DNA of 64,000 nt from a virus, in IMG/VR virus record IMGVR_UViG_3300020477_001012, positions 109,843 through 173,842 of that record. One strand, written 5' to 3'. The stretch's first letter is position 1; each line of letters opens with the position of its first letter. The notes beneath the pieces are model-generated. The model ran no database searches. It saw nothing but the letters and a program-made list of their open reading frames with translations, and was not told where the DNA came from. The position numbers were made by a program, and so were the translations under genes. Below, piece by piece: positions 1,314 to 57,370 of the stretch.

Positions 1314-1326
1314 AGGAATCTTTACA

Positions 1327-1890: not shown

Positions 1891-1893
1891 GCA

Positions 1894-2802: not shown

Positions 2803-2803
2803 T

Positions 2804-4379: not shown

Positions 4380-4823
4380 ATGAATATAGGTTTTTATATT
4401 AACTCAACAAACGTAAACCCGCCAAATGATGCAATTTTCAAAGCTTTAAATGAAGCGGTATCCAACAAGGAAGTTACAGACGCCAGCGTGTTCTATAACG
4501 ATATAGATTTTAATCCAACAGAAACAAAGTTTGGCATGTTTAACTCTACTGAGTTGTGGGCATTCACCGGAGTGCTCGTTGCCACTAGTGTGGCCAATGT
4601 GGTTCGCTCCCTGAAAATTGTCAACAAGCTTCGCCCTGTTTATCTATACCATCAAGGCGATGAGGGTAGTAAGGATCTAATGGGGTTGCTACACATAACT
4701 AACCAAGTTAAAATTATTACCAGAAGCGAACAGGACAATAAAGAAGTCTACAGACTCACTGGTGAAAAGGCCACGGTTATTCCTGATCTGAATATTTCCA
4801 AGATTTTTGAGGCATCACAATGA
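4380..4823 (+). CDS. Unknown protein, possible glycosyltransferase-like fold
   Basis: Not recognised with confidence. The 147-residue product has alternating hydrophobic strands and helices (MNIGFYINST, LWAFTGVLVATS, RPVYLYHQGD, VKIITRSEQ, KATVIPDLN) that resemble half of a GT-B glycosyltransferase, including a late segment that looks like a nucleotide-sugar-binding half. No catalytic motif can be named and it is far too short for a full enzyme. A strong ribosome site (AAGGAGAGG) lies 13 bases after the glmS stop. The stop codon overlaps the start of the next gene as ATGA. Position suggests a sugar-related role (inference). Confidence 0.7.
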   Translation: MNIGFYINSTNVNPPNDAIFKALNEAVSNKEVTDASVFYNDIDFNPTETKFGMFNSTELWAFTGVLVATSVANVVRSLKIVNKLRPVYLYHQGDEGSKDLMGLLHITNQVKIITRSEQDNKEVYRLTGEKATVIPDLNISKIFEASQ

Positions 4824-5584
4824 ATAAACTTGACATAAGCATTATCAAAATGTACAATGAAGACAACAAGAGTACCTACGAAATAGCTGAGGCTCTCGGT
4901 ACGTACCCAAACAAGATTAGGAGAACCCTAAAGAAGCATGGATACGAACTGAAAGATAAAAAAACAGCACAACAGAATGCCCTAAAGAGCGGTAGAAGTC
5001 CGCACCCCACAAAGGGGAAAACAAGATCACTAGAAGAGAAAATAAAAATTAGCGGAGGCTTGGTCAACTACTGGGAAGATATGAGCGATGAGGAAAAAGA
5101 AAGAAGGGCAGAACAAGCAAAGGCAAGGTGGGAGGAGATGCCACAAGAACAAAAAGAGAAAATGAGAACGAGGGGAATAGAGGCCATCCAGAGATCAGCC
5201 AAAGAGGGATCTAAATTAGAAAGATTTTTGCTAGACAGACTGGGCAAGCTTGGATACGAGGTGAAGTTTCACCAAATGCTCATTCCCGCCGAAAAATTAG
5301 AAATTGATTTGTATATTCCCACACTCAAGACTATAATAGAAGTAGATGGGCCTTCACATTTCCTTCCCATATGGGGAGAGGAACGACTGCAAAAACAAAC
5401 GAATGCCGATCTGAGAAAAAGTGGAACTCTGCTTAGTAAAGGATATGTAGTTATCAGGGTTAAGACAGTTGGTTTTGAATCTATTAAAAGAAAGGAAGAT
5501 ATAATAAATCAGATTGCGTCTCATTTGAACAAAATTGAAACCAAGTTTCCAAAAAGATCGAAACGTTTTATTGAGGTTGAATAA
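4820..5584 (+). CDS. EDxHD/Vsr-type endonuclease with N-terminal HTH
   Basis: Probable free-standing homing-type or nicking endonuclease. Residues 15-45 form a helix-turn-helix (STYEIAEALGTYPNKIRR). Residues 58-115 are basic and repetitive (GKTRSLEEKIKIS, then RWEEMPQEQKEK), like the NUMOD-type DNA-binding modules of phage homing enzymes. Residues 130-235 hold a Vsr/PD-(D/E)XK-like nuclease core: Glu134, Asp163 in LEIDLY, IIEVDGPSHF with Glu174, Asp176 and His180, then NADLRKSGTLLSKGY. In the known EDxHD family the last motif residue is Asp; here it is Phe181, a variant. It starts inside the stop of the upstream gene (ATGA) and ends immediately before the next ATG. The target is unknown. Confidence 0.8.
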   Translation: MNKLDISIIKMYNEDNKSTYEIAEALGTYPNKIRRTLKKHGYELKDKKTAQQNALKSGRSPHPTKGKTRSLEEKIKISGGLVNYWEDMSDEEKERRAEQAKARWEEMPQEQKEKMRTRGIEAIQRSAKEGSKLERFLLDRLGKLGYEVKFHQMLIPAEKLEIDLYIPTLKTIIEVDGPSHFLPIWGEERLQKQTNADLRKSGTLLSKGYVVIRVKTVGFESIKRKEDIINQIASHLNKIETKFPKRSKRFIEVE

Positions 5585-31658: not shown

Positions 31659-34600
31659 TTATTCACCCATACCGGCGATTTTCTTTAGTCCATTGTTAGT
31701 TGCTTTGTATTTAGGTATTTCGTCACGCACGGCGTCAAGCACTATATCTCTAATGGCTGGTTCAAGTTTTGGAAGAACCACGTTAACACTGATGGGCGGC
31801 ATGGAGTTAATATCAACACCCATGGTAAACCCTGTAAGCTTGTCAATAGCATTGGCAAATGAGGTTACAGCCGTGCCTAACGCTGGCATAGCATCACCAA
31901 ACATTGAACCCATTTTCTGCACAAGGTCACCAAATTGATAATAACCAACTGGACCGCCTGCGCTCATGGCGGTGGCGGGCGCGGTGGCATCTTGTCGACC
32001 ACTGCTATTCATGGCCCTAAGTATCTGCAAGTTATTACCACGATTAACGGCAGCACGATTAACCACAAATTCTCCCGGGGTCAACATGGCAGGAACAGTG
32101 TCAGTTCCACGAGGAACAAAAATACCCCTATTGGCATAAACTACGCCGCCTCTATACATGCCAGCTAGTTCTCCCACTCCCCTATCTGCCGCAGTTTGCG
32201 AGGCCACTTTTCGTTGCATCGTTTCATCAAATACTACTTGAGCATTTGTAATTGTTACTGTAGCCTTAGCAACTTCCATCTTCTTAATCTCTGCCATTTG
32301 CTGGGCTTGGGCGCCCAACTCTGAGGCCAACCCTCTACCCTCAGCTCGCAGGGCCTCAGTTTCTGCATCTCGCCCAACCATGACTCCGGCAGATCTGGCA
32401 TCCGTAATGCCCATAGTCGACAGAGTGATACCAGCAGCCCGTTGCATTTCCGCATCAGACATCCCAGTGCCTTCTAGGCTCTTCATTCCGGCACCAAGGG
32501 CTGACGGGCTAAACAAGCTAGCCATGTTGGCGTCCCCGGCTCGTAAGGCGGCAGCAGCCCCAGCAGCGGCTTGTTGCTCGATGAAACCCTCAATATCTCC
32601 AGCCATTAATTTTTCAAAAGAACTTTTTTCAGCAGCATTCTTCTTGGCTATAATAGCAATCTCTTCCTTGATTTGATCAATCCTCTGTCTCGTCAGAGCC
32701 ATAAGGGCATCGTTGGTCTTGGCTAATTCTGTTGTTCTATCTTCGTCAATTCCTCCCGGCCCCTGAAAACCACCGCTGGCCTTGCGTGCCATCTGCACAT
32801 CAGTCTTGGCTGCCACCTCTTCTCTTGCTCTGGCAAGCTCGCCAGCACTAGCATTGCGAAGAGTCTTGATCCCAGCGTCTTGGGCGACCAAGTTGAACTG
32901 AGCCACACGCGCTTGCTCTTTTTGTTCTGAGCTAAGCTTGTCTCCACCAAAGTCCTCAAAAATCTTAGCTGCCTGTAACTGCACATCAATAGCTTTCTTC
33001 TGTGCCTCAATATAGGCAAGCTCTGACGCCCTCCTAGCCTTGGTTAATGCTACGATGGTCTTTTGGTGTTCCAGTACAGCCTTGGCGGATTCCAGAGCAG
33101 TTTTTCTGAGTGGGTCTAAGCCGGATTTGATTTCTTCAATTAAACTGCTCGCGTCTCTGCCTCTGATGTCTCCTAGACTCTGAACAGCCCCCATTATAGC
33201 TTCTTGGGTAGCCTTGTCGGTAACACCAGCTAACAGGGAAGTTTCTAAGCTTGACTTGGCTGCCGCCTCACTACTTTGGTTAATGTCTAACCCGCTAATT
33301 CGCTTCTGCAAGCTGCCCATGAACTGGTTAACGCCCTGCGCCCGATCAAATGACCGGTTAACAGCTTGACCAACAGAGCTATTCTCACCCCCACCGACTG
33401 AGGCTAAAACTTGTTCGCGCGCGTCGTTTAAAGCCCTCTCGCCCTCTTCTCCCATCCCCATGTTAGCTTGAGCAGTCTCTATGGTCGCAATAGTGCTTTC
33501 TAATGCCAGCGATCCGGTTTCTAACGACGATAAGAAGTTATTCACAGCGTTGCTCGACGCGGCGAACACCGACATAACCTTAAGATTATCAAAGTTTGCT
33601 TTCGCTACCGCCTCCATCGCCGCTTTCATCTTGAAGGCCGCAACTGCTGCCGCTTTCTGTGCCTCTGCTCCTGCGGCAGTAGCGCCTCCAAACTCATCAA
33701 AGAATTTAGTAAGCTGATTAATGCTCGTGGCATTCTTACCCATAATCGCGGCAGCTTCTAGTTCTTGTTTCTTGAGGGCATTTAACTTTTCAGTCTTTGC
33801 CTGCCCCTCATCCATCCTATTGATGAAACCCATAGCCTCGGTGCTGGACCTTAACACCGACTCGCCCAGCTTTTCTACCTTAACTCCTCCAGCTCCCACA
33901 AATTCGCTCGCTCTACCCTCTACGGTCTTTCCAGTCTTTGCTTCTTCAATGAACTTGGACTGTTTGCCCACCGCCGCCTCTGTCGCATCCGTTGCTGCCT
34001 GAGTAACGACCTGTTGGTGTATCTGGTCTCTTAGTTCTTTTGGGTCCGTAGTAAGCGCCCTGATGATTCCTTGCATGGTGAACATCTCCGAAAATGCTTC
34101 ATTCATTGCACGCTCTTGTCCAGCCTTGCCCGCCCCCGTCACATCTCCTTTGTCTTTTGCTTTTTCAGCTTTTCTTCCGGCTATCTCCGCTAACGCCCCG
34201 AACACTTGACCTGAAATCATGGCTGCCGACATCGCTAGTCCCGCCGCACCGCCAATGGCGGTAGCGCCCCTGCTCATGCCTTTCCCGACCCTGCCCTTCA
34301 TGCGGGACATCATCCCGCCACCTTTCGTTTTTCGCATCTGGGCGTTCATTTTCTTCAGGGCGCGAGCAGCTTTGTTGGCGTCTTTTGGTAGTATCTTTAA
34401 TTGCTTACGGAAGCCGTTGAGCTTCTGTTTGCCCTTTGTGAAGCCAATGCTTAATAATTTCAACCCGTATCTGTACCCTTTGGTTCCTTTTAACGCTTTC
34501 CTTTTTGCTATTAGCTCTCTGTTTAGTTCCCGCCCGTATGCCCTCGCGTGCTTCACGGCGGGATGATAGTGTTTGGCCTCTTTGTTTCTAGTCATCGCCA

Positions 34601-37600
34601 ATTTTTTGGCAGAAGTCCGAAGATTGTTCTGGCTACCAGCTAATTTCTTGTTGGCTTGACCAAGATCATTTTGCGTTGTTTTCAATCTCTTTTGAGTATT
34701 AACGTATCTATTGTTAGCATCCCTTGAGTCTTTCACAGCCGCTGCTTCTTTCCTGAGTGCTTTGGCTTTCTCCTCTGCGGCAGCCTTAGTAACGACGGCT
34801 TGCTTCTTAGACGCATCGGCACTGTTTTTGGCTGCTAGAATTGCGGCCTTTTCCGTTCTAACGGCACCTTCCCGATTCTTATTATAGCTCTTCTGTCTCC
34901 GCTCTGCGTTCTTCAGTTCGTCTTGCAGTTTTCTAAGTTGTTTCTCCCACCCTGCCGATTTAACACCTCCGCTGACACCTTTCTTGGTGTGAATGAAAGC
35001 GCCGTCGCCTTTCCTCCTCTTCCTTGTAATTCCTCGGTCTTCTAATTGCTTCCTGTGGGCGCGTATCTCGGCCTTCTTTCGATTTACCGCCTCGGCTTTT
35101 TTACCGCCCGGCTCCCAACCCTTCTCCATTTGCTTTCTGTGTCTTGTTGCGTCGTCAGCCCCAGCCTGATCTTTCGCTGCTTTGGCTTTTTTCTGTGCTA
35201 GACGGGTTTCTTCTGTCGCAGCCACCCCAGTCGCTGCCGCCGCCGTTTTCGTAGCCGCTCTTTTCCTCTTGTTGGCTTCAGTCCGGTCGCCCTCATCAAC
35301 AGCGACCTGCTTCTCTAGTCGGTTCCTTTTTTTGTGTAGCCTTCTTTTTTCGTTTCTGTCTTCTTTCATCTCCTTGCCTTTGTTGGCAAGATCTTTCTCT
35401 CCCTTTTGTACCGCTTTCTCCTTGGCAAGCTCAGACACGTTGCGAGCGTCACTGACCTTTTTCTTCTTCTTCTTGCCCTTCTTTTTAGACTTCTCCGTTT
35501 TCTCTTCTTCTTTTTTGGTCTTGGTCTCTTCAGTGGCCGACTCGGAAGTTGCCTTGTCTGCCTTCTTCTTGTCTTTCTTCTTCTTGGACGAGCTTTTTTT
35601 GGTATCTTCTGCCTCAGACGAAGCCTCTGCCTCGGCCTTCTTCTCGGTCTTCTTCTTTTTCTTCTTCTTCTTGCCCTCGGCCTCCTCCAAGGCTTTTTCT
35701 AACTTAGGCTTCTTGTCTTTTTTCTTTTTATCTTTCTTGACATCTTTGGCGGATTTCTCAAGAGCTTTCCCCCATTCTTTGAGTTTCTTCGTAAGCAGCA
35801 TACTAGCCTGTATGATAATAGCAAGCTGTATTAGAGACTGAGAAACCCGCTCCGCAGCAACGGCGGATACGAACTGGGCGTCAGTAGCTTCTTTGCTCTT
35901 GTCTCCAAAATTGCTTAATGCCGTGGCCGCGAAGCCAGACATAAGCATCATCTTTTCCATACCCCCAAATCCGCCACCACCACCAGCCGCGCCACCCTTG
36001 GCAAATTTCTGCACTCCCACTGGGCCGCCCGCAGCAAACCCAGTCACGCCCTTTTTGTTCATTCGGTTCAGGTTAGCGTAACCGATACTTCGAGCAGATT
36101 TTTTATTGACGACAAATTCGCCGGGAGTGAGGAGGGCGGGGACCGTGTCTGAGCCAGAAATTCCACCGCCAGAGGCTCGCCTTGTACGTCCAAATTCGCC
36201 AGCTTTCCTTCTTTTTCCTACTTCTGATTTACTCAGCCCTGTAAGTTTAGCAACTGCGCTATCGGCCACATCAACTTGCTTGCTCTTGGCGTAAATAGCA
36301 TTAATCTCGCTACTTTTTGCAGCAAGGGTTTCTTGGCCCTTGAGACTCTTAAACAGTTTGTATTCTTCTGCTAATAAGTTGGGGTATTTCTTATTAATAA
36401 CCTCGTCAACATATGATTTATTTAGGGTTCTTTTTGCGTCTATTGGTATACTGGCAAACTCAGAAAATTTACCTCTAGCTAGAGATCCTAAACCTGACGG
36501 AAAATCAAATGCTGAATTGTTATCTGATTTAGTCTTGGCTCTTTGTCGTGCGTCTTGCGATCCAGAATCAAAGGGCGCGCCGATCTTAACCAACAGAGCT
36601 TCAAATGCATTCCCAATAACCCCTTCAATCCCAAGCTTATCCAAGTCTGTGAGAGATAAGTCTCGACCGGTAACCTTTCCTTCTCCAGATAGACCCGAAA
36701 AATAGGTCTTTAAGCTATCGCCACTGGCATTGATAGCCTGTAGAAACGAATCCTTGATTGCCGCTTCAGTTTTGTCTCCAACGGTCTGATCACCAATCGC
36801 CATGCCGCGCGAGGTGACAGATAGTGAGCCACGCTTAGCTAGGAGTTGTTGAAATTCTGGACTAAAACTCCTCTTGGCACTCTGTAATACTTGTGCATTT
36901 TCCCTTATTTTCTTAACGCCTTTGGCATCTGCTGAAAATCCAGCTTTACCAGCAACATCTTTGAGTGTTACAGAACCCTTGGCTTCCAGAGGTTTGTTTG
37001 GGGGGTCTTTGTCATATGGTCGCAGCGCTATAATGCCACCTGCGGCATATTTATTTTGATTCATCGCCTGAAGCTGGTCGGCCCCAATCTTCTTCACGCT
37101 ACTCTTGCGAATAACAAATTCCCCGGGCTGTAGCATAGCCGGGACTGTGTCTCGGTTTCCAGAACCGGGCACAAAACCACCACGGGCAAAGTGGTGGATT
37201 TTACCACCCTGATGTTTTGCCTTGACGCCCCTGAGTGATGCGCCAATTCCAGCAGCAAAACCGCCAATACCTTGACTGACCTTAACTGCGGCAAATGCAC
37301 CAAGAAGTGGGATGATGGGCTTGAGGGCATCGGCAACTTTGATCAGGGCAGAAGCAAGACCAAGGGCCGTTTTTGCCATCACCTGAAAAGATGTGGACTC
37401 AGTAATTCCCCTTACCAAGGCAAGAAATTCTTCTTTAACCTTGACGATCTGAACGGCCAAAGCCTGTTGGGCCGTGGCAGCGTCTCTTGTTAAAGAGTCC
37501 CCACCAGCGATGGCGGCCTGTCGCGCCCTCTCGGCTGTCTCAAATTGCTGCAAGAGGGGGATGACTTTACCGATTTGCCTAAAGCCACCAAGTTGCTCTG

Positions 37601-38561
37601 CTATCTGAATAAACTTCAGGTCACCAGCAGGAACGTCAGCAAGAGCTTTACTGAGTCTTTTTACGGCCTCGAATGGGCCAACAAATCTACCATTAAGATC
37701 TGTAAGAGAAACACCTAACTCCTTTAGGTATTGAATGGTAGCTGGTCTTTGAATACGTGTAAGAATGGTACGCAAACCAGTAGCAATAGACTCAGAACTT
37801 TCACGAGTCGTAGCACGGATGGATGTAAAGAGACCTAGAAATTCTTCGAGGCTACCACCAGCAGCTTTAAAGACACCACCAGTACGGCGAATAGCACCAA
37901 TAAGGTCACCAGACTCAACGGCAAACTGGCCTGCCACAGCATTGATGGCACCCAGTTGTCTCTCTAATTCTCCCACGCCCTTTCCAAACTGGGCGAGAAT
38001 AGCAACAGCACCTTCTGCTGTCTTGTTTATATCCTCAAAGGTGGGGGCCAAGGTAGTTTTAGCTAAAGCTTCTAGCGCAACCTTCAAGTCACCAGCCTGA
38101 ATACCAGCCTGAGCCAAGATTCTAGTGACAGCCACCAAGTCTGTAGAAGATGTACCTAGAGTGACAGACAAACGAGAAATTTCATCACTAAGGCCCTTAA
38201 GCTCTTTAGTGGTCTTGCCCGTCACTTGGGCAATTTTGATGATTTCCCGTTGAAAATCTATAGACTCTTGGACGGCACCAGCTAAGCTATTGGTAAACAG
38301 GCTAACTGCCCTAGAAGCAATCGTAAAGGCAGCAAATCGCTTGAGGGCGACCCCAAACGTTTTGCCCATATTGTGTGCAGCACTTGTGGCTTGATTTGTA
38401 GCCGCAGTAATCTGCTTGATCTGCCTTTGAGCCTGTGTAGCACCTTTAACATTTACATTTACAGACACACCAGATAATTGGCTTTTTATCTGGTTTACAA
38501 CCTGTTGAGTATTCTTAGGCGCTTGTAGCTTAAGTTGTGCAGTCAGTACAAATTTAGACAT
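31659..38561 (-). CDS. Tail tape measure protein, TP901 type (2300 residues)
   Basis: Sets tail length and is ejected with the DNA. Residues 1-420 form the TP901-type core (repeated QIKSQLSGVSVNV, LFTNSLAGAVQES, ISRLSVTLGTSS, RTGGVFKAAGG, LRTILTRIQRPA). Hydrophobic segments lie near 400-445, 900-920 and 1430-1460. The motif DTVPAMLTPGEFVV, found in many tape measure proteins, occurs three times (about 470, 805 and 2150), each time with a basic helix and a MN residue pair after it. Residues 935-1040 are a Lys/Glu-rich low-complexity block. Residues 1040-1430 are a long charged helical region. Fully helical, 2300 residues would span roughly 345 nm at 0.15 nm per residue, so the tail should be very long. 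The ribosome site is weak (GAGAGA). Confidence 0.95.
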   Translation of the reverse strand: MSKFVLTAQLKLQAPKNTQQVVNQIKSQLSGVSVNVNVKGATQAQRQIKQITAATNQATSAAHNMGKTFGVALKRFAAFTIASRAVSLFTNSLAGAVQESIDFQREIIKIAQVTGKTTKELKGLSDEISRLSVTLGTSSTDLVAVTRILAQAGIQAGDLKVALEALAKTTLAPTFEDINKTAEGAVAILAQFGKGVGELERQLGAINAVAGQFAVESGDLIGAIRRTGGVFKAAGGSLEEFLGLFTSIRATTRESSESIATGLRTILTRIQRPATIQYLKELGVSLTDLNGRFVGPFEAVKRLSKALADVPAGDLKFIQIAEQLGGFRQIGKVIPLLQQFETAERARQAAIAGGDSLTRDAATAQQALAVQIVKVKEEFLALVRGITESTSFQVMAKTALGLASALIKVADALKPIIPLLGAFAAVKVSQGIGGFAAGIGASLRGVKAKHQGGKIHHFARGGFVPGSGNRDTVPAMLQPGEFVIRKSSVKKIGADQLQAMNQNKYAAGGIIALRPYDKDPPNKPLEAKGSVTLKDVAGKAGFSADAKGVKKIRENAQVLQSAKRSFSPEFQQLLAKRGSLSVTSRGMAIGDQTVGDKTEAAIKDSFLQAINASGDSLKTYFSGLSGEGKVTGRDLSLTDLDKLGIEGVIGNAFEALLVKIGAPFDSGSQDARQRAKTKSDNNSAFDFPSGLGSLARGKFSEFASIPIDAKRTLNKSYVDEVINKKYPNLLAEEYKLFKSLKGQETLAAKSSEINAIYAKSKQVDVADSAVAKLTGLSKSEVGKRRKAGEFGRTRRASGGGISGSDTVPALLTPGEFVVNKKSARSIGYANLNRMNKKGVTGFAAGGPVGVQKFAKGGAAGGGGGFGGMEKMMLMSGFAATALSNFGDKSKEATDAQFVSAVAAERVSQSLIQLAIIIQASMLLTKKLKEWGKALEKSAKDVKKDKKKKDKKPKLEKALEEAEGKKKKKKKKTEKKAEAEASSEAEDTKKSSSKKKKDKKKADKATSESATEETKTKKEEEKTEKSKKKGKKKKKKVSDARNVSELAKEKAVQKGEKDLANKGKEMKEDRNEKRRLHKKRNRLEKQVAVDEGDRTEANKRKRAATKTAAAATGVAATEETRLAQKKAKAAKDQAGADDATRHRKQMEKGWEPGGKKAEAVNRKKAEIRAHRKQLEDRGITRKRRKGDGAFIHTKKGVSGGVKSAGWEKQLRKLQDELKNAERRQKSYNKNREGAVRTEKAAILAAKNSADASKKQAVVTKAAAEEKAKALRKEAAAVKDSRDANNRYVNTQKRLKTTQNDLGQANKKLAGSQNNLRTSAKKLAMTRNKEAKHYHPAVKHARAYGRELNRELIAKRKALKGTKGYRYGLKLLSIGFTKGKQKLNGFRKQLKILPKDANKAARALKKMNAQMRKTKGGGMMSRMKGRVGKGMSRGATAIGGAAGLAMSAAMISGQVFGALAEIAGRKAEKAKDKGDVTGAGKAGQERAMNEAFSEMFTMQGIIRALTTDPKELRDQIHQQVVTQAATDATEAAVGKQSKFIEEAKTGKTVEGRASEFVGAGGVKVEKLGESVLRSSTEAMGFINRMDEGQAKTEKLNALKKQELEAAAIMGKNATSINQLTKFFDEFGGATAAGAEAQKAAAVAAFKMKAAMEAVAKANFDNLKVMSVFAASSNAVNNFLSSLETGSLALESTIATIETAQANMGMGEEGERALNDAREQVLASVGGGENSSVGQAVNRSFDRAQGVNQFMGSLQKRISGLDINQSSEAAAKSSLETSLLAGVTDKATQEAIMGAVQSLGDIRGRDASSLIEEIKSGLDPLRKTALESAKAVLEHQKTIVALTKARRASELAYIEAQKKAIDVQLQAAKIFEDFGGDKLSSEQKEQARVAQFNLVAQDAGIKTLRNASAGELARAREEVAAKTDVQMARKASGGFQGPGGIDEDRTTELAKTNDALMALTRQRIDQIKEEIAIIAKKNAAEKSSFEKLMAGDIEGFIEQQAAAGAAAALRAGDANMASLFSPSALGAGMKSLEGTGMSDAEMQRAAGITLSTMGITDARSAGVMVGRDAETEALRAEGRGLASELGAQAQQMAEIKKMEVAKATVTITNAQVVFDETMQRKVASQTAADRGVGELAGMYRGGVVYANRGIFVPRGTDTVPAMLTPGEFVVNRAAVNRGNNLQILRAMNSSGRQDATAPATAMSAGGPVGYYQFGDLVQKMGSMFGDAMPALGTAVTSFANAIDKLTGFTMGVDINSMPPISVNVVLPKLEPAIRDIVLDAVRDEIPKYKATNNGLKKIAGMGE
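35458..35750 (-). repeat. Lysine-rich low-complexity tract inside the tape measure gene
   Basis: The minus strand reads runs of AAG and AAA triplets broken by GAG/GCC, coding KKDKKKKDKK, GKKKKKKKKTEKK, SSSKKKKDKKK and SKKKGKKKKKK. It is a slippage-prone stretch and codes a highly basic segment in a protein that otherwise has mixed charge. It is coding sequence, not a separate element. Confidence 0.85.
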
Positions 38562-39464: not shown

Positions 39465-39839
39465 CTAGTCCTCCTGAGATTGATTTTCACATGTCTTAAC
39501 TGGAATAGTAACAGAATACCTCAACCATTTTACATCATACTGGTTGAGTTCTGCATCGACATTGCGTGCCTGTGTATTACCTTTGTCTAAAATTTCCGAT
39601 CTTACTTTTTGGAACGTGTCGTGCATAATCTTCTGCTCTGGGGTTAACTCTCCCCCGGACTGATTAGTCCATAGAAATGAAAAGTGCTCCTCCACAGAAC
39701 TGAGAGCACCGATCATGGTGGTCTCTACTTTTTTCTTTAATATTTTAGACAATCTATGCTTGGAATCATGTTTAAACTTGTCCTCTCTTACGCTCTTGTA
39801 TTCCTTTTGCTGCCTAATCAGCTCATTAAATTCGTCCAT
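39465..39839 (-). CDS. Small helical protein of the tail chaperone cluster
   Basis: A 124-residue, strongly helical and charged protein (ELIRQQKEYKSVRED, KHRLSKILKKKVE, TPEQKIMHDTFQKVRSE). Ends YSVTIPVKTCENQSQED. Its ribosome site (TAGGAGA) spans the stop of the upstream gene and its own 3' end carries the ribosome site of the next gene, so the three are coupled. Position between two paralogous chaperone-like genes and before the tape measure supports a tail-assembly role (inference). Confidence 0.7.
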   Translation of the reverse strand: MDEFNELIRQQKEYKSVREDKFKHDSKHRLSKILKKKVETTMIGALSSVEEHFSFLWTNQSGGELTPEQKIMHDTFQKVRSEILDKGNTQARNVDAELNQYDVKWLRYSVTIPVKTCENQSQED

Positions 39840-39841
39840 AA

Positions 39842-40882
39842 TTATCTCCTAAATTTTCCCTTAAACTGTTCATTGGATTTTTGAGTCATCTTGCGTTGTT
39901 GGTCCTTGAAGTCTAGATCTCTTGCCTGTCCTTTGGACTGTATAACTTCCATTCTTTCTTTTTTAACCATTTGGGATTGAAAAGTGTTTACCCTGTTGAT
40001 ACTGTTTGCATCATCTTGAGTTTGAGCCATCACAAACACTTCCTCTGAATTAGAAATCTTCTCGTTGCCCACTCTGTTCTCAAGCTCTGATTCGGCCCTG
40101 TCTTTTTCTTGCTTCTTTCTTTGGATAACAAACCAGCCGTCTAGCATGTCATCATCATTTATAACATCATCGCTAGGGCAGTCCATTGACTCTTGAATAT
40201 TGTCGTACATCCTTGACCAAACAATAATATTTTTTTGGTCTATAGACAGGTCTCTGTCTTGATTGGCAAAAATTGAAAACTTACAAGACTCCCTCATCAT
40301 CCACAAAGATCGCCACGGGTCGTTACGTGCTAAATTTCTAATGTCTCCTTCATCCAAAACCATATTGTTAAACTCGTGCAGTACATTATTGATGTCAATG
40401 TCGTCAAAATTGCAAGGCTCAGAACCAACGAACGTACATTGCTTTATGAAAGACAAAGATTTTTCTAAACTTGCTAATCCTTCGCAGGTATTTTGCCGAT
40501 TTCCATGCTTCTTTTCTAGTTGTTCACCAATGGCTTTCTCTGTCACCCTTATGTATTTTCTAATATGCTCTCTTTTTTCGCTTTGATACCTAGCATTGAA
40601 AATCTCCACACGCAGTCGTTCTAGGTTATCCTCTAGTTGTTTAACTTGGTTGTCGTCATCCTCTGTCCATAGCTGTCTGGATCTCATCCAGTCAAGCATC
40701 TCCTCCTCTGTCATCAATCCCGCTTCGAGCGCCCTTTCATAACTCTCCATGTGAGCGGCGTTAATAATGAAATCATCTTCAATTGAGGGCGAAACAATTG
40801 TAAGAGTAACTCCACTTTGTTTGACCCTATAAACTCCACTGCGTATCCTAGATATAAAATACTCCCGCTCATGATTCTTCAT
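39842..40882 (-). CDS. Tail assembly chaperone-like protein, paralogue of the 38597-39460 product
   Basis: A 346-residue, mostly helical and charged protein. Residues 40-95 share a pattern with the protein at 38597-39460 (HMESYERALEAGLMTEEEM; then a long helix QVKQLEDNLERLRVEIF against SLERDLYRG-type sequence), so the two probably arose by duplication. The C-terminal 90 residues are coiled-coil-like and basic (QKKQEKDRAESE, KDQQRKMTQKSNEQFKGKF). ATG 40882 has GAGG 7 bases upstream. It follows the tail tube gene after an intergenic region with a strong RNA structure and a short upstream ORF that overlaps its start, pointing to controlled expression. Function by position, not by family match. 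Confidence 0.7.
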   Translation of the reverse strand: MKNHEREYFISRIRSGVYRVKQSGVTLTIVSPSIEDDFIINAAHMESYERALEAGLMTEEEMLDWMRSRQLWTEDDDNQVKQLEDNLERLRVEIFNARYQSEKREHIRKYIRVTEKAIGEQLEKKHGNRQNTCEGLASLEKSLSFIKQCTFVGSEPCNFDDIDINNVLHEFNNMVLDEGDIRNLARNDPWRSLWMMRESCKFSIFANQDRDLSIDQKNIIVWSRMYDNIQESMDCPSDDVINDDDMLDGWFVIQRKKQEKDRAESELENRVGNEKISNSEEVFVMAQTQDDANSINRVNTFQSQMVKKERMEVIQSKGQARDLDFKDQQRKMTQKSNEQFKGKFRR

Positions 40883-40916
40883 ACAAAAACCTCATGGCGG
40901 GAGTATGGTATTTCAT
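40869..40916 (-). CDS. Short leader ORF overlapping the chaperone gene start
   Basis: Sixteen codons including stop (MKYHTPAMRFLYEES). A strong ribosome site (AAAGGAAGGA, about 8 bases) lies directly after the closing stem of the RNA structure and before this ATG, stronger than the site of the chaperone gene (GAGG). The reading frame ends 14 bases inside the chaperone gene. Either a translated leader that couples or tunes chaperone translation, or a chance ORF. Confidence 0.4.
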   Translation of the reverse strand: MKYHTPAMRFLYEES

Positions 40917-40929
40917 ATATGTATCCTTC

Positions 40930-41017
40930 CTTTAACGCTACGACATACTTGCCTATCCTCTCCCCTCTGGGGTATTAGCTATCGCAAGTCGTAACATTGG
41001 TTCCTTAGCGGTTAAAG
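40930..41017 (-). ncRNA. Structured intergenic RNA between tail tube and chaperone genes
   Basis: On the minus-strand transcript four nested helices can be paired by eye. Outer: CTTTAACCGC (41017-41008) with GCGTTAAAG (40938-40930), one bulge. Second: TACGAC (40993-40988) with GTCGTA (40944-40939). Third: TTGC with GCAA. Inner: CCCC-AGA-GGGG (40972-40962). The second, third and inner helices have no mismatches. It lies in the 148-base gap after the tail tube stop. There is no U tract, so it is not a simple terminator. The ribosome site of the short leader begins within the 3' end of the outer stem, so folding could gate translation. Not recognised as a known riboswitch class. Confidence 0.6.
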
Positions 41018-41030
41018 CCCACTAATACTA

Positions 41031-42221
41031 TTATGTAGCTTGATATATATTCGCTGGGAACGTGAATTCCCGAGCAGCTCCATTAAGCACTTTTAACTCT
41101 TCAAATCCAATATAGCCATTTTCTGTATAGTGTTGAACATCCAACTCATTAAAGTTAGTGTAGCTGTAAGTGCAGGTTGCGTTTCCACCACCGGCATCGC
41201 CTCCACCATAACTGACACTAGCCAGTCGGTTCTTTTGGCCAAGGTCAAAACCATAGCCCGCTCTGGTGCAGAAGAAGATATTTTCTTCACTCGTGTTGTT
41301 TCCAGAATCGGCTGTGGTATCTAAAGCAGAATCACCAAACTCATAGGCGTTTACAAAATCGCCAGACGTGGTAATAGCTTCAATTTCACAACTAACTTCA
41401 ATTGGGAACGTGGCAGGACGCGCATATGGAGTTTTCCGGCCAAGCTCTAAGATATCTTCACGAGAGAAGTCGGTGCTAACAGAAACGTTCTGGAGGTGAA
41501 CGCGATTGTTAAGCGTTGTACCGTCAAGGCCATTTGCATAATTTGTTCCAATAACGCCCTTGATGCTGGCTGGAAGAATAGAACCAGACATTATAACATC
41601 TTCACGCTGCTGAATACCACCACTATGGGTAGCAGCCCCATCGCTCGTTCCAGCGGTTTTAGCTGCGGGAGAATCTGTACCATCAAACGGATCTACCGCT
41701 GTAGCAATCATTTTCTGCCCAGTCGTCAACCACACCTTGTTGTTACCAACCAAAGTCACGGACTCTGTAGCGTTGCCATCTACCGGCAATGTATAACTAA
41801 TACTACTGACGTACATGCCAGAGCAGTAAACTTCAGCTTCTGCTGGGTCAGTTCCTGCGCCAACGTTATTGAAGTTGTCTGGAAAAATGCCAAGGCGAAT
41901 GTCAGATCGGGCCTTGGACCGTCCCACTAAACCTGAACCAGCGGGCGAGCCATCAAGATTACCCCTAGTTGCCATGTGGTAAATCAGTGGATATCCATCT
42001 AAAACTTTCTCTAATGTCATCTCGACATCAGGCGTGCCTTCGATATTTTCGTAAATCTCAATCTGACCAAGCTCAAAAGCCTGTTCCAAGTTGAAATTCG
42101 TGTTCATACCCACACTTTGCAGACCATGCACCATGTCCGCAGGCACCACATTCAACCCATCACCGTGAGGTTGAATGCCTACGGCCTGTGTTGCATAAAA
42201 TATTCTATCATTAGTTGACAT
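41031..42221 (-). CDS. Major tail tube protein
   Basis: The 396-residue product has the look of a phage tail tube: YENIEGTPDVEMTLEKV near residues 56-72 matches a beta-hairpin element common in large-phage tube proteins, and the rest is beta strands with Gly/Thr loops (SGMYVSSISYTLP, ATESVTLVGNNKVWL, VHLQNVSVSTDFSRED). It sits between neck genes and the chaperone/tape measure genes, the standard place. A candidate late promoter lies 37 bases upstream and AAGGAGA is the ribosome site, as expected for an abundant virion protein. No tail sheath gene is present in the window, favouring a non-contractile tail. Confidence 0.85.
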   Translation of the reverse strand: MSTNDRIFYATQAVGIQPHGDGLNVVPADMVHGLQSVGMNTNFNLEQAFELGQIEIYENIEGTPDVEMTLEKVLDGYPLIYHMATRGNLDGSPAGSGLVGRSKARSDIRLGIFPDNFNNVGAGTDPAEAEVYCSGMYVSSISYTLPVDGNATESVTLVGNNKVWLTTGQKMIATAVDPFDGTDSPAAKTAGTSDGAATHSGGIQQREDVIMSGSILPASIKGVIGTNYANGLDGTTLNNRVHLQNVSVSTDFSREDILELGRKTPYARPATFPIEVSCEIEAITTSGDFVNAYEFGDSALDTTADSGNNTSEENIFFCTRAGYGFDLGQKNRLASVSYGGGDAGGGNATCTYSYTNFNELDVQHYTENGYIGFEELKVLNGAAREFTFPANIYQAT

Positions 42222-45473: not shown

Positions 45474-48400
45474 TTACATTTCTGTCAAAGCGTCAGTTTT
45501 AAACCAATTAGTTCCATTAGTTACTATTAGTCTCCAATCGCTTCCGTCCTTATATAAGGCAACGACTCCTTCTTCTTTGTCTATTTTATATTCTTGATCG
45601 GTTAATGTTGCATGTGTATATGCGTTGGCAGTCGAGCCAGTACCATTGACGTTGAGGGCTACCGGCAATTCCAACCACCCATGTTTATTCACGATAGTAT
45701 TCGCAAGCCCAGCAGAAGTGATAGATGACTGTATCTGGTCAGCCGACTGGGCTGACTGCTTGCGGGTTTTTAGTACAACATCCGTGGAAGACGCGGGATT
45801 TAGAGTCAACGTTGTTGTAAGTAAATCGGTTAAGCCGGGAACATTGCCAATACTTAAATTCTTTGAGGATGTTCCATCGGATCTGCCATGAATAATATCT
45901 GCTATGTCAATATAGCCATCCAAGGCACTCGTCGTCCAAGTAGTTGGGACGACCCTATTGCTCGGATTGATAACCAAGTGATTATCGGTATTGACTTGCA
46001 TTCCAAAACCAGCCCTGTATCCTAAGAAGATAGAGTTCTTGTTTTGGTCTACCCCCGAACCAGCTTCAGCTCCAATAAAGATGCTGTAATCACACCCTGT
46101 GCTAGAAGCTCCAGCCTTGTGTCCTATTACGGTCCCGTAGTCAAGACCCGAGGCCGCTTGACCAGCATGACGACCAATCATTTCGCTAAGCTTGATATCT
46201 TCTGCGTATGTTCCGGCAGAGTGGCCAATGGCGACCGAGTTTTGAATTCCGGTGCCGTGAGCAAAAGCGTTTAACCCAATACCCACTGATTGCTTAAGCC
46301 CACTGCCATATGCTGCGGCGCTCTCTCCCAGATAAACCCCGGTCGTCGCATTAGCGCTCTCTTTGCCCGCATTGACACCAATAAATGTAGTGCTATAATT
46401 ACCTGAAGAAAGAAGACCGGCTTGATAGCCCATCATATTGGCGTGTTGAACATGTTTCGTCCCAGATCCAGCAGCCCAACCCAAAGCAGTATTATGACTA
46501 CCAACAATAGCCCCAAATGCGGCATCTTTTCCAATGGCTATTAAGTAATCGCAACCCGAAGCTTGAAATGCAGCATGATGGCCTATAATATTCACATAGT
46601 GAGAATCTTTTGTAGAAAATCCAGCCCTGTAACCAACCATGGTACTTGAAGAGCTAAGCATAGCACCATACCCAGCCCCGGGACCAACCATAGTCGCGTG
46701 GGGGCAGCCACTGGACTCGTAGCCCGCACTCGGGCCAACCATTGCGGAGTAAAAATTCCCGCTCGCCCGGGAACCCGCGCTTAACCCAGCCATTAGTGAC
46801 ATGTTGCAGCCGCTGGCGCGATATGCTGCATAACGCCCAATCATAACGGAATTAGCACAATCCAGCGAACTATATCCCGCATGGCCGCCAATCATATCTG
46901 CGCCCACGTTGTTATGGGTATTATATCCAGCATTCTGACCTATCATGGTTGAGTCAAAACAGCCAGTCGATAGATGACCAGCACCCGACCCAATCATATT
47001 GGTATAATCACAGCCGCTAGACAATTTCCCAGCATTCTGACCTATCATCACGGTGGAGTCATTACCGCTAGCTCCATACCCAGCAGCCGTACCGATGGCT
47101 ATCCAGTGCGACCCCGTGTCTCCCAGATCAAAAGAATCGCCACCACTAGTGCCTATTCTAATCTGATCATTGTTAAATATCAGGTGCTCTAATTGACCAG
47201 AACCATTAATGTCCATATGGATGGTGTCGTCCACCTTGGTTAAGCCACTACCGGCAGCAGTGCTGCCAACACTAATACCGTCAATTTGAGACTGCATAAC
47301 CCCAGAAAGACCGCTGGGATTCAGCGTAAGCATGTTAGTACTAGCGTCGTAATGCGTACCAACACCACTAACACCACTAATGGTAACTGTTTGGCCACCG
47401 GCAATTAAATCATCAGCAACCCAACCGTCTGTTATATTCCAACCGGCATAAGTAGCGGCATTATCAATATCATAACGGAGAACACCAGACAGGCCGCTGG
47501 GGTTCAGCGTAAGCGTATTAGTGCTGGCATCATAATGGGTGCCTACGCCACTAGCTCCACTAACGGTAAACGTCTGGGCGTTGGCAATATTGTCTCCGGC
47601 GACAGTGCCATCTGTAAATGTCCAGTGTGTATAACTACCCGCAGCGAGTACTGCTGCGTCGGTATATGCCTTGGATACGCCATGAAGATCTTCGGTATAC
47701 CCTGATATGGCAGCGCCGCTAGCTGAATTTACTCGTATTTCACCGAGATTGAAATCACCACTGGCTGAATTAACTCGAATCTCTGTTAAATTAAAGTTAC
47801 CACTGGAGGAGTTGGCTCTTATTTCTGTAAGATTAGACGCTATTTGTGGCGTCAATACCCCGGATAGCCCACTAGCATTAAAGACAAGATGATTAGACGA
47901 GGCGTCATAATGCGTACCGACGCCACTCGCTCCACTAATAATAACCGTTTGGGCGCCACCAATCAAATCACCCGCAACGGTGCCGTCTGTTAGATTCCAA
48001 CCCGCATAAGCAGTAGCATTATCAATCTGATATTGCATAACACCAGACAGGCCGCTAGGATTAATTATAAGTAACCCGCTGTTGCTCGCTGGGTCAGTCG
48101 TGAACTCTGTGTGAATACCACTCACGCCACTAATAGACAGAAGGTATTTAGTATGAATATCACCGGAGGTGGCCGCACTGTCTCCAATCTGGAAAATGTT
48201 TCCGGGGAAAGTTAACCCGCTAACATGAATCTTCTGATCAGTAGTCCATGCGTCCGTAGAGTCTCTCCATGTCCACTTCTTGTCAGTATCAGTAGACTTG
48301 ACGATAATACCAGCATCGTCTACATTGGCGTCATTATAGAGTGCGGTGCCACTCATCGATGCCAACTCAAGATTCTTGTCCCAGATGGTAACAGTACTGC

Positions 48401-49520
48401 TATCTACATATGTCAAATCACCACGAACATCAAGGTTACCACTGATCGTGGCATTTCTCCCAACCACCAAATCTCTAGTAAGCACAGAATCACCAGAGAC
48501 TAAAATATCACCACTGACACTAGCCGCCCCATTGACATCCAATGTGGTTCGCGGGTCATCTATGTTGACACCCAGCCTGTTGTCAGTTTTTAAGAATACG
48601 AGCTGGGGATCATAAGTTACAATACCACTCTCTTTGTATAGAGCAACCGACCCCGCTGGGATAGTAGAAGCATCAATCCCCATGTTGGTATCTTGAACAA
48701 TGTAAAAGTCGCCAAGATCGGGGATGTCACCTGAATTAAGAAGCCTAAATGAGGGATAGTCCGGGGTGCAGCTCCCATCAGCACAACCACTAATTGGGCC
48801 AGCAAAGAAGGTGTTCGTATCTTGCTTCAACAGGGTGATTCTCTGGTCTACAAGACCGCTCAACGCAAACACGGCATTCGATCCGGTTGTGGCATCAAGC
48901 TCATTTCTGACAAAGGGTTCTAGCTGCCTACCACCTGAAGCTACAGTGCCACCAAGTGTGGTTTGCCCACCAGAGAACAAAATTCCAGATCCACCATCCA
49001 AGAAGCCGGAAGCCTGAATTTGTGAATAATCAACGGTACCGCCAATGTCCAAAGCATACTGGGGGTCTGGCTGGGTAATTCCCAGCTTGTCTCCTGACGC
49101 ATTCCAGACCAAGCTGTCGTCATGACACAATATCTGAGAACTACCCCAGAAAGCTAGCCCGCTAGGCTTAGGCTCTTTAAAATCGCCCAGACCGGACGCA
49201 GTGAATACCGCATACTGACCCGGGTACGTAACATAAACTTCTTTAACTCCCGCAGCAAAATCAACAGCATTGTTACTATTAGTACTCCTGAAGGGAAATC
49301 GTACCAAGCTATTGCTGCTACCATCAGGAAGATATTGGCCAGAACCAACTTCATAGTCTGTACCATCAGTCACGGCATAATACAACGCATCGCCAGACTC
49401 ATAGAAATCACCAAAGGCACTAAAGCCCGTGGCGGCCCCGTCTAAACGAAGAGATCCCGTACCTATGGAATGAGATAGCTCTTTAATTCTATCTGATAAT
49501 ACAATTATTTGGTCTGACAT
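45474..49520 (-). CDS. Long trimeric fibre with 17-residue beta-roll repeats
   Basis: A 1348-residue fibre. Residues 1-30 (DQIIVLSDRIKELSHS) resemble a trimeric coiled-coil attachment segment. Residues 30-470 are beta-rich. Residues 470-740 contain about three copies of a 62-residue repeat (AGWNLTDGTVAGDLIGG, then SGVGTHYDAS and LNPSGLSGV). Residues 803-1173 carry about 22 repeats of 17 residues with pattern SxMIGxxAGxxxSGC, a YadA-like left-handed beta roll; seven repeats end with Cys. The C-terminus (residues 1174-1348) is a different beta domain ending NWFKTDALTEM. Such proteins form homotrimeric receptor-binding fibres. AAAGGT precedes the ATG. Confidence 0.85.
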   Translation of the reverse strand: MSDQIIVLSDRIKELSHSIGTGSLRLDGAATGFSAFGDFYESGDALYYAVTDGTDYEVGSGQYLPDGSSNSLVRFPFRSTNSNNAVDFAAGVKEVYVTYPGQYAVFTASGLGDFKEPKPSGLAFWGSSQILCHDDSLVWNASGDKLGITQPDPQYALDIGGTVDYSQIQASGFLDGGSGILFSGGQTTLGGTVASGGRQLEPFVRNELDATTGSNAVFALSGLVDQRITLLKQDTNTFFAGPISGCADGSCTPDYPSFRLLNSGDIPDLGDFYIVQDTNMGIDASTIPAGSVALYKESGIVTYDPQLVFLKTDNRLGVNIDDPRTTLDVNGAASVSGDILVSGDSVLTRDLVVGRNATISGNLDVRGDLTYVDSSTVTIWDKNLELASMSGTALYNDANVDDAGIIVKSTDTDKKWTWRDSTDAWTTDQKIHVSGLTFPGNIFQIGDSAATSGDIHTKYLLSISGVSGIHTEFTTDPASNSGLLIINPSGLSGVMQYQIDNATAYAGWNLTDGTVAGDLIGGAQTVIISGASGVGTHYDASSNHLVFNASGLSGVLTPQIASNLTEIRANSSSGNFNLTEIRVNSASGDFNLGEIRVNSASGAAISGYTEDLHGVSKAYTDAAVLAAGSYTHWTFTDGTVAGDNIANAQTFTVSGASGVGTHYDASTNTLTLNPSGLSGVLRYDIDNAATYAGWNITDGWVADDLIAGGQTVTISGVSGVGTHYDASTNMLTLNPSGLSGVMQSQIDGISVGSTAAGSGLTKVDDTIHMDINGSGQLEHLIFNNDQIRIGTSGGDSFDLGDTGSHWIAIGTAAGYGASGNDSTVMIGQNAGKLSSGCDYTNMIGSGAGHLSTGCFDSTMIGQNAGYNTHNNVGADMIGGHAGYSSLDCANSVMIGRYAAYRASGCNMSLMAGLSAGSRASGNFYSAMVGPSAGYESSGCPHATMVGPGAGYGAMLSSSSTMVGYRAGFSTKDSHYVNIIGHHAAFQASGCDYLIAIGKDAAFGAIVGSHNTALGWAAGSGTKHVQHANMMGYQAGLLSSGNYSTTFIGVNAGKESANATTGVYLGESAAAYGSGLKQSVGIGLNAFAHGTGIQNSVAIGHSAGTYAEDIKLSEMIGRHAGQAASGLDYGTVIGHKAGASSTGCDYSIFIGAEAGSGVDQNKNSIFLGYRAGFGMQVNTDNHLVINPSNRVVPTTWTTSALDGYIDIADIIHGRSDGTSSKNLSIGNVPGLTDLLTTTLTLNPASSTDVVLKTRKQSAQSADQIQSSITSAGLANTIVNKHGWLELPVALNVNGTGSTANAYTHATLTDQEYKIDKEEGVVALYKDGSDWRLIVTNGTNWFKTDALTEM
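45990..47112 (-). repeat. 51-base tandem coding repeats (about 22 copies)
   Basis: Diverged 51-base units coding the 17-residue roll of the fibre protein. Copies differ at the DNA level, but IG followed by two residues and AG recurs in nearly all. Cys codons fall at the last position of seven units (near 46076, 46555, 46708, 46808, 46861, 46958 and 47009). Confidence 0.8.
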
Positions 49521-55948: not shown

Positions 55949-57370
55949 TTAATGCCCAAAGCGGCCTTTAGTTTTTTGATAATTGTCCATTATTTCTGCG
56001 GCGGATAATGTTTTAGTATAGAGTCGTACTGATCCTATCTTACCATCAAGATCATTTTGAATCGTACTACCGTCTAATCGGCAGCCTATAGTTGTACCAG
56101 TTTTAATAGTAAATCCATGCCCCGCCGTCAAACTCTTGCTATCTCCATTCTGATATACTGCAACTATTTCGTCAGAAGCATTTATAGTTACAGCCCAACA
56201 TGTCCAAACTCCGTCAGAGACAGTAGTGCTAACACCGTAGGTGTAATTGGAGCCACTATTTTCCGATCTAAAAGCCATCCATACAGTCCCGCCAGTCTCA
56301 TACTGACCAAAAGAAACACAAAATTGGTCGGCAGCACTTTGAAAAGGAGTGTAGACTCCCCCATCCATATCGTCCACACTAAACCATATAATAGCAGATC
56401 TTGCTGTACCAGAATAATCAGGAAGTGTTGTAATATTCACATAATCATCAGAGCCATCAAACACTAAGCTGCCACCATTAGCAGAATCAAAAGAAATATC
56501 TCCACCCGAACCGTTATTTACAAAAGTTCCGTCATAATTATTGGCCGTATCTTTCAGTGTGGTTCCACCACTATAGCTATTAGGATCACCAGCGTCCCAA
56601 CTGGCAAATAGGCCATCTGTAGTAATTCTCGGCGCAAAGCGGGGTTTTGTTGCTTCGTAGTTTTGGAGGATTTGAGCAGCAGTTAATTCTTTATTATAAA
56701 GAGCGACTCGGCCTATATATCCCTCGAAGGCACCAGAGCCATTCCTGTCCAACCCCCACCGAGTAGCGTTCTCCTCCCCACCATTACCAGCGCCACCCAT
56801 GGTCCCATCGTCTTTCTCTTCACCATTATAATAAATTTTGTAACTACTGTAAACAGCAGAGTCACCACCACTATATGTAAAAGTCCAATTCGCCCACTTC
56901 CCAATATTAGCCGAAAGTTCTGCGGCAGCGTCATTCGATCTTCGATTAGTACCAACACCCCCTGTAGTCGTCCTTTTTCCACATCTTACTGAATAGTTAT
57001 GCTGATCTTTGTCCATTATCCAAAAAGTAAATTCTTCTCCAGCTCCCCCTCCACTATTATAGAGAGAAAAAACTGTATACTTAGCGCTATCCATATCAAG
57101 AAAATATAACCATATATCAAAGGTGAATCCACCATCTCCGTCTATATCAGTAGTATTCGCCACAGTAACTTTTTCGTCAGTTCCGTCTAAAGCAATAACG
57201 CCCATATTTACATCTGCAAACCCAGCATCATTATCTAGAACTGCTGGAGCGCTTACACCCAAGCTATTCCACGTACCCCCATCACTCGGAGTACCACACC
57301 TGCGATTACCTGCATCCCAACAGGCCACAAGCCCATCAGTAACTATATTAGTAGAGGCTACAGCACCCAT
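55949..57370 (-). CDS. Double LamG/concanavalin-like lectin protein
   Basis: A 473-residue protein with two LamG-type jelly-roll domains (residues about 1-235 and 240-473). Each starts with a TDGLxAxWDAG motif and ends with a VxLYxKxLxAAEI helix. Domain 1 contains GFTFDIWLYF, domain 2 ARSAIIWFSV, the usual core strands. The ending KTKGRFGH is shared with the gene at 58380-59105. Such domains bind carbohydrates or proteins. The start overlaps the stop of the preceding gene (TAATG). Confidence 0.85.
   Translation of the reverse strand: MGAVASTNIVTDGLVACWDAGNRRCGTPSDGGTWNSLGVSAPAVLDNDAGFADVNMGVIALDGTDEKVTVANTTDIDGDGGFTFDIWLYFLDMDSAKYTVFSLYNSGGGAGEEFTFWIMDKDQHNYSVRCGKRTTTGGVGTNRRSNDAAAELSANIGKWANWTFTYSGGDSAVYSSYKIYYNGEEKDDGTMGGAGNGGEENATRWGLDRNGSGAFEGYIGRVALYNKELTAAQILQNYEATKPRFAPRITTDGLFASWDAGDPNSYSGGTTLKDTANNYDGTFVNNGSGGDISFDSANGGSLVFDGSDDYVNITTLPDYSGTARSAIIWFSVDDMDGGVYTPFQSAADQFCVSFGQYETGGTVWMAFRSENSGSNYTYGVSTTVSDGVWTCWAVTINASDEIVAVYQNGDSKSLTAGHGFTIKTGTTIGCRLDGSTIQNDLDGKIGSVRLYTKTLSAAEIMDNYQKTKGRFGH

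What the first reader, a model, noticed from the sequence alone, without database searches (positions are those of the whole stretch)
40917..41030. Multi-helix RNA element between tail tube and chaperone genes
The 148-base gap forms four nested helices by eye (outer 41017-41008 with 40938-40930; then TACGAC/GTCGTA; TTGC/GCAA; CCCC/GGGG). A ribosome site (AAAGGAAGG) begins inside the last bases of the outer stem. Tail tube protein is needed in far larger amounts than chaperones, so a fold that lowers or times downstream translation, or protects the tube mRNA end from decay, would make sense. It matches no riboswitch class that I can recognise.
Basis: partly seen in the sequence, partly recalled or inferred. 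Interest (0 to 1): 0.7.

Follow-up and report, generated by a model that had tools for sequence, protein, structure and literature searches.

The report
New RNA control element before tape-measure genes
Between the tail-tube gene and the tail-length genes of a group of uncultured aquatic phages lies a conserved, previously unlisted RNA structure, followed by a tiny reading frame and a hairpin that encloses the next gene's start codon, which together probably set how much of the next genes is made.

Summary
The minus-strand gap holds a conserved RNA cassette of up to four parts. (1) An upstream hairpin with a 7-nt loop, where some relatives carry an intrinsic terminator. (2) A ~60-nt element: freely covarying stem P1 around a near-invariant core, GCGAUAGC...GGA...GCRAGU. 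(3) A short leader ORF with its own Shine-Dalgarno, ending at the start of the next gene. (4) A hairpin enclosing that gene's start codon, followed by a U-run.
P1 covaries at all nine pairs over 39 distinct sequences (score 0.637 against 0.185 shuffled). Hairpin (4) forces Arg6 to be CGG in 54 of 57 genes (background 1.8%). The core occurs once in each whole contig in which it was found (8 checked), always before this gene where readable. No Rfam family matches.
Best reading: cis-regulatory leader in which leader translation opens a start-codon, terminator-like hairpin, limiting chaperone and tape-measure expression relative to the tail tube; P1-core gates the leader through an unknown partner. 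Structures are shown; the mechanism is inferred.

The parts
41031..42221 (-). major tail tube protein gene (396 aa), upstream neighbour
   Evidence: AlphaFold model (low confidence, pLDDT 61.5) matches phage tail tube proteins of the T5 pb6 type, Foldseek E 4e-9 to 3e-7; next to a tape measure gene
41005..41025 (-). SL0: hairpin UUAGUGG-(GCUUUAA)-CCGCUAA followed by GGA; replaced at the same place by an intrinsic terminator in some relatives
   Evidence: fold; mean stem score over 32 loci 15.9 vs 11.2 shuffled, 15-20 nt before the core in about 23 of 32; terminators in L128, L130, L144, L146-L148, L151
40934..40998 (-). P1-core RNA element: stem P1 (40998-40988 / 40944-40934) enclosing GCGAUAGC (40985-40978), AGGA (40959-40956) and GCAAGU (40952-40947); private CCCC/GGGG insert 40972-40962
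   Evidence: covariation; CM hit window 59.5 bits E 8e-14 (the window was in the seed); no Rfam match
40924..40933 (-). Shine-Dalgarno AAAGGAAGGA of the leader ORF, starting right after P1
   Evidence: sequence; same layout in almost all core-bearing relatives
40869..40916 (-). leader mini-ORF MKYHTPAMRFLYEES*, ending 14 nt past the first base of the next gene's AUG
   Evidence: leader in 31 of 32 non-redundant core loci; frame varies, peptide not conserved, never in frame with the next gene
40859..40906 (-). start-site hairpin AUACUCCCGC.CAUGA / UCAUG.A.GCGGGAGUAU; SD GAGG and AUG of the next gene lie at the base of and in its loop; UUUU follows
   Evidence: z -6.26; 9 of 15 pairs with double-sided changes, 0/500 shuffles; codon constraint R6 CGG 54/57 vs 1.8%
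39842..40882 (-). downstream gene, 346 aa, in the tail-assembly-chaperone position; its first 9 codons contain the 3' arm of the hairpin and the U-run
   Evidence: helical AlphaFold model pLDDT 82, no fold match; position between tube and tape measure
31659..38561 (-). tape measure protein gene (2300 aa), downstream in the same direction
   Evidence: PHROG tape measure families, E 2e-25

Best explanation
It is a cis-regulatory mRNA leader between the tail-tube gene and the chaperone/tape-measure genes. The start codon of the first downstream gene sits inside a stable hairpin followed by a U-run. The hairpin keeps ribosomes off that start and, to an unknown degree, ends transcription there. A ribosome translating the short leader ORF stops at or just past the start codon, melts the hairpin and can re-initiate, so downstream expression depends on leader translation and stays below that of the tail tube. 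The P1-core element sits directly upstream of the leader's Shine-Dalgarno. Its near-invariant internal-loop nucleotides are most likely a recognition site for a protein or other ligand that tunes leader translation. Shown: structures, conservation, position, leader geometry. Inferred: repression, opening by leader translation, attenuation. Unknown: what binds the core.
For: P1: all nine pairs show double-sided changes in 39 distinct sequences; 87.3% of cells paired vs 60.4% shuffled; slid controls 30-40%. Arms pair within a locus (20.2) but not between loci (9.7 +- 3.6). The unfitted seed alignment gives the same. Core near-invariant over ORF346 homologues down to about 30% identity. G-U pairs in P1 favour RNA over DNA. 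One copy in each of eight whole contigs, before the same gene wherever the downstream side is readable. Leader: 31 of 32 core loci, different frames, never in frame with the gene. Start hairpin: 9 of 15 pairs double-sided; R6 CGG P 6e-91, E7 GAG P 1e-23; both arms about 10% unpaired, leader SD 71% unpaired, mean energy -23 kcal/mol. U-run: TTT at codons 8-9 enriched, odds ratio 4.3, P 5e-4; TAT 5.7, P 0.006; L148 and L151 have hairpins with long U-runs there. Loci without the start hairpin mostly carry a canonical terminator after the tube gene. Both parts of the mechanism are established for bacteria: translation opening RBS structure, ribosomes preventing terminator hairpins (PMC12548453).
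Against: No expression data of any kind. The start hairpin has a 17-20 nt loop and in the window only four U, so as a terminator it would be weak; the terminator scan did not report it. About half of the relatives have hairpin and U-run but no core, and around ten of these have no clear leader AUG, so the core is not needed for the basic function. L128, L144, L146 and L147 have the core but a weak or absent start hairpin and no clear leader. The terminator/hairpin alternation is confounded by phylogeny (five of the terminator loci are one clade). The leader start is only 53% unpaired on average.
Confidence: 0.55

Rival explanations
1. The P1-core element is a riboswitch-like sensor of a small molecule acting on the leader Shine-Dalgarno; the hairpin is its expression platform.
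For: About 18 near-invariant nucleotides in internal and terminal loops around a freely varying stem, as in aptamers; placed just before an SD.
Against: No Rfam class matches. The regulated genes are tail-assembly genes with no metabolic link; the motif was found in no cellular gene context in 85,000 genomes (three true hits, all of this phage gene). No alternative pairing that would make a switch is conserved.
Confidence: 0.12
2. The element is a protein-binding operator for feedback: a phage structural protein (tube, ORF346 or tape measure) or a host RNA-binding protein binds the core and blocks leader translation when in excess.
For: Conserved core loops next to an SD; strict association with one gene; phage translational operators are well known (MS2 coat protein, T4 gp32, gp43, RegA; from own knowledge).
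Against: ORF346 has no recognisable RNA-binding fold. Many homologues of the same gene lack the core, so an autogenous role would have been lost in them.
Confidence: 0.3
3. Only the start-site hairpin matters, as a plain attenuator or terminator that steps transcription down after the tail-tube gene; the P1-core is an mRNA-processing or stability element.
For: Hairpin also present in many relatives that lack the core; U-run codon bias; canonical terminators at this junction in relatives lacking the hairpin; terminators directly before the core in L128, L130, L144, L146-L148, L151.
Against: Does not explain the leader ORF with its stop kept at the next start, nor the near-invariant core.
Confidence: 0.2
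4. DNA-level element (origin, packaging or recombination site).
For: Inverted repeats in one copy per genome.
Against: G-U pairs tolerated in P1; strand-specific link with leader SD, stop and start codon; codon constraint inside the gene.
Confidence: 0.03

Closest known systems
Translational coupling by RNA unfolding, e.g. f1 genes VII/IX, fr coat/lysis (PMC12548453)
   Same: Downstream start inside or next to a hairpin, upstream ORF stops at or next to it
   Different: Here the upstream ORF is a dedicated non-conserved mini-ORF, preceded by a conserved structured RNA
Transcription attenuators with leader peptides (trp/his type)
   Same: Short leader ORF before a hairpin with U-run; translation would decide whether the hairpin forms
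   Different: No conserved codon or amino-acid signal in the leader; the hairpin overlaps the structural gene's start; antiterminator-like segments seen only in L148 and L151, weakly in L150
Phage translational operators (MS2 replicase start hairpin, T4 gp32 pseudoknot; own knowledge)
   Same: Start codon in a hairpin that a protein could hold shut
   Different: Separate upstream RNA domain with an internal-loop core; no binder known
Candidate structured RNAs of phages in Rfam (manA, wcaG, c4; PMC2864571)
   Same: Found by covariation mainly in environmental or phage sequence; function inferred
   Different: Different gene context; no Rfam hit
Intrinsic terminators after major virion genes (e.g. 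T7 T-phi after gene 10; own knowledge)
   Same: Would step down expression after an abundant virion protein
   Different: Hairpin lies within the next gene and appears coupled to its translation start

Membership tests
Any Rfam 15 family, riboswitches included | score at or above gathering threshold | tested here: not met
   window and four relatives: 0 matches; permissive search gives only chance-level hits, mostly snoRNA/miRNA-like
Structured cis-regulatory RNA | compensatory base-pair changes across homologues | tested here: met
Structured cis-regulatory RNA | effect on expression of the linked gene | not testable with these tools
   no expression data available; sequences are from uncultured phages
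Translational coupling | upstream ORF stop close to the downstream start, with RBS structure | tested here: met
   leader stops mostly from -13 to +14 of the start; hairpin over SD and AUG
Leader-peptide attenuator | regulatory codons or conserved leader peptide | tested here: not met
   leader peptides differ in frame and sequence
Leader-peptide attenuator | mutually exclusive antiterminator and terminator | tested here: inconclusive
   competing segment only in L148 and L151, weakly in L150; not in the window group
Intrinsic terminator | GC-rich stem directly followed by a U-run | tested here: inconclusive
   stem and at least 5 T within 8 nt in 55 of 56, but long loop, only 4 U after the window stem, and not reported by the scan; L148 and L151 look canonical
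Riboswitch | direct small-molecule binding | not testable with these tools
   needs in-line probing
Tail assembly chaperone (G/GT type) | position between tube and tape measure | tested here: met
Tail assembly chaperone (G/GT type) | sequence or fold similarity to known chaperones | tested here: not met
   no PHROG, Pfam or PDB match
Tail assembly chaperone (G/GT type) | programmed -1 frameshift | not tested
   ORF124/ORF297 overlap 39465-39490 noted only

The most novel reading that the evidence does not exclude
The P1-core is a new class of sensor RNA with which phages measure a structural-protein or assembly signal and adjust tape-measure and chaperone synthesis relative to tail tube, working through a mini-ORF-opened attenuator that overlaps the start codon.
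Probability: 0.25. Interest if true: 0.85.

Novelty: new variant of a known kind. Interest (0 to 1): 0.72.

Why it matters
Tail assembly needs many tube subunits for few tape-measure and chaperone molecules; how siphophages other than the model phages set this ratio is little known. A strongly covarying RNA with a near-invariant core, fixed at this one gene junction in at least 45 contigs and absent from Rfam, makes that question directly testable with a reporter and an RNA pull-down. It also shows a hairpin so constrained that it dictates codon choice (Arg6 CGG) at the start of a structural gene.

Tried and rejected
UUGC/GCAA as a conserved helix: some loci break it (e.g. L070, L076, L102, L128) and none compensates; P2 (GCY/RGC) fits the variation at its third pair better, though 12 of 36 cells there are unpaired. 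CCCC/GGGG as part of the element: only in the window and L031. Known RNA families: none. tRNA: none. Cellular occurrence: 5 hits in genome contigs, 3 of them this same phage gene junction, 2 without P1. Further copies in the same genome: none. General antiterminator segment before the start hairpin: only L148 and L151, weakly L150. Cultured phages: no match to the tube or ORF346 proteins. Literature: no description of the motif in the searches made.

Full report
What was checked. The window lies in a 173,842-base virus record. On the minus strand the gene order is tail tube (41031-42221), a 148-nt gap, ORF346 (39842-40882), ORF124, ORF297 and a 2300-aa tape measure protein. The tube assignment is supported by fold: the AlphaFold model, though low in confidence, matches T5-type tail tube proteins at Foldseek E 4e-9 and below 1e-6 for several. 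ORF346 has the chaperone position but no recognisable relative of known function. No cultured phage record matches tube or ORF346.

The P1-core segment alone gives -3.49, the start hairpin -6.26, and 191 nt including it -3.94. The outer stem CUUUAACCGC/GCGUUAAAG competes with P1 and is not conserved; its 5' arm forms a local hairpin, SL0.

Relatives. One close relative (L001/L031, ORF346 91% identical) has the same gap with scattered changes. ORF346 homologues at 43-47% identity showed the shared motif UUGCGAUAGC..AGGA..GCRAGU between unrelated but complementary arms. A pattern scan of IMG/VR gave 25 contigs; 22 of them are this gene junction and 3 are chance. An alignment search with ORF346 gave 80 loci; with the window and two genome loci, 41 of 83 have the core, 32 of them non-redundant. 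Two further scans added L144 and L147-L151, again after the same kind of tube gene where readable; the next gene is ORF346-like wherever it is readable (L149 ends too early, L144 shows only its start). A scan of 85,000 cellular genomes found three true copies, all in this phage gene context inside assembled contigs, and two chance hits. Each of eight whole contigs with a hit has exactly one copy.

Covariation. In the CM alignment of 39 distinct rows all nine P1 pairs show double-sided changes, 87.3% of cells pair, and the covariation score is 0.637 against 0.185 +- 0.020 in shuffles and 0.08-0.14 when the partner is slid. That alignment is fitted to the model and includes two chance hits (L055, L137), so two independent checks were made: the unfitted seed alignment (0.692 vs 0.276), and a comparison of 5' arms with 3' arms of the same or of other loci (20.2 vs 9.7 +- 3.6). 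P2 (GCY/RGC) has two invariant pairs and a third that goes UA, UG, CG or unpaired. G-U pairs in P1 argue for RNA.

Start hairpin. In front of almost all of these ORF346 genes, with or without the core, CUCCCGY and a copy of RCGGGAG inside codons 5-7 pair, with the SD at the base of and the AUG in the loop. Nine of 15 pairs show double-sided changes and 0/500 shuffles reach the observed pairing or covariation. The constraint is visible in codon choice: Arg6 is CGG in 54 of 57 genes although CGG is 1.8% of Arg codons in these genes (P 6e-91), and Glu7 is GAG in 51 of 55. Codons 8-9 prefer TTT and TAT (P 5e-4 and 0.006), which keeps a U-run after the stem. In L148 and L151 the hairpin is followed by seven to eight U.

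Leader ORF. 31 of 32 non-redundant core loci have an SD-preceded AUG about 30-43 nt before the ORF346 start, and the frame ends close to it, mostly between -13 and +14. The peptide and its frame differ between lineages (YTPAMRF.., YSRREVL....FPLVKF..) and the leader is never in frame with ORF346. What is kept is therefore the stop position, as expected for coupling by RNA unfolding or re-initiation (PMC12548453).

Comparative anatomy. Relatives without the start hairpin mostly have an ordinary intrinsic terminator after the tube gene (L122-L126, L128, L129, L133, L134). In one sublineage the core directly follows such a terminator (L128, L130, L144, L146-L148, L151), where other loci have SL0. 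This fits a junction that is under pressure to separate tube expression from what follows. It is confounded by phylogeny and is not proof. The ORF346 tree needs four gains or losses of the core, the core being present on both sides of the root as drawn, so it is probably old within the family.

Mechanism. Shown: structures, positions, leader geometry, conservation. Inferred: the hairpin holds down translation and possibly transcription of ORF346 and the genes after it; leader translation opens it; the core gates the leader. Predicted accessibility fits: leader SD 71% unpaired, hairpin arms 10%. The core's near-invariant internal loop suggests a specific partner, more likely protein than metabolite given the gene context; this is inference. 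The core is dispensable in half the family, so it is an added control on a basic coupled hairpin.

Limits. The set is viral contigs from public metagenomes, many incomplete; hosts are unknown. CM E-values come from a model seeded with nine of the sequences, so the seed members match by construction. Sequence identity in the gap between the window and L031 alone would prove nothing; the case rests on the distant relatives.

Noticed in passing
39465-39490: ORF124 and ORF297 overlap by 26 nt just before the tape measure gene; a G/GT-like programmed frameshift is possible but was not tested.
   Followed up: no
31659-38561: The tape measure protein carries at least three copies of a motif like GxDTVPAxLxPGEFVxxxxA and a long lysine/glutamate-rich stretch.
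   Followed up: no
45474-49520: 1348-aa protein with many repeats of the type MIGxxAGxxSxG, probably a repetitive tail or fibre protein.
   Followed up: no
L004-L018, between tube and ORF346 homologue: Most of these tube relatives carry a separate ~50-codon ORF (MEEIFSTIGKLYLDLLQSQKIIEGLQKK..) in the place where the window has SL0, core and leader.
   Followed up: partly
L148, L150 and L151, upstream of the ORF346 start: Extra CGGGA-type segments could pair with the 5' arm of the start hairpin, giving an antiterminator/terminator-like choice; the fold program prefers the start hairpin.
   Followed up: partly
20-4366: Sugar-metabolism genes (DegT-type aminotransferase, nucleotide-sugar epimerase, SIS/glutamine amidotransferase protein), followed by an HNH endonuclease at 4820-5584.
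   Followed up: partly
55949-57370: Structural protein with a concanavalin-like lectin domain; its C-terminal half is about 30% identical to virion proteins of Synechococcus and Flavobacterium phages.
   Followed up: partly
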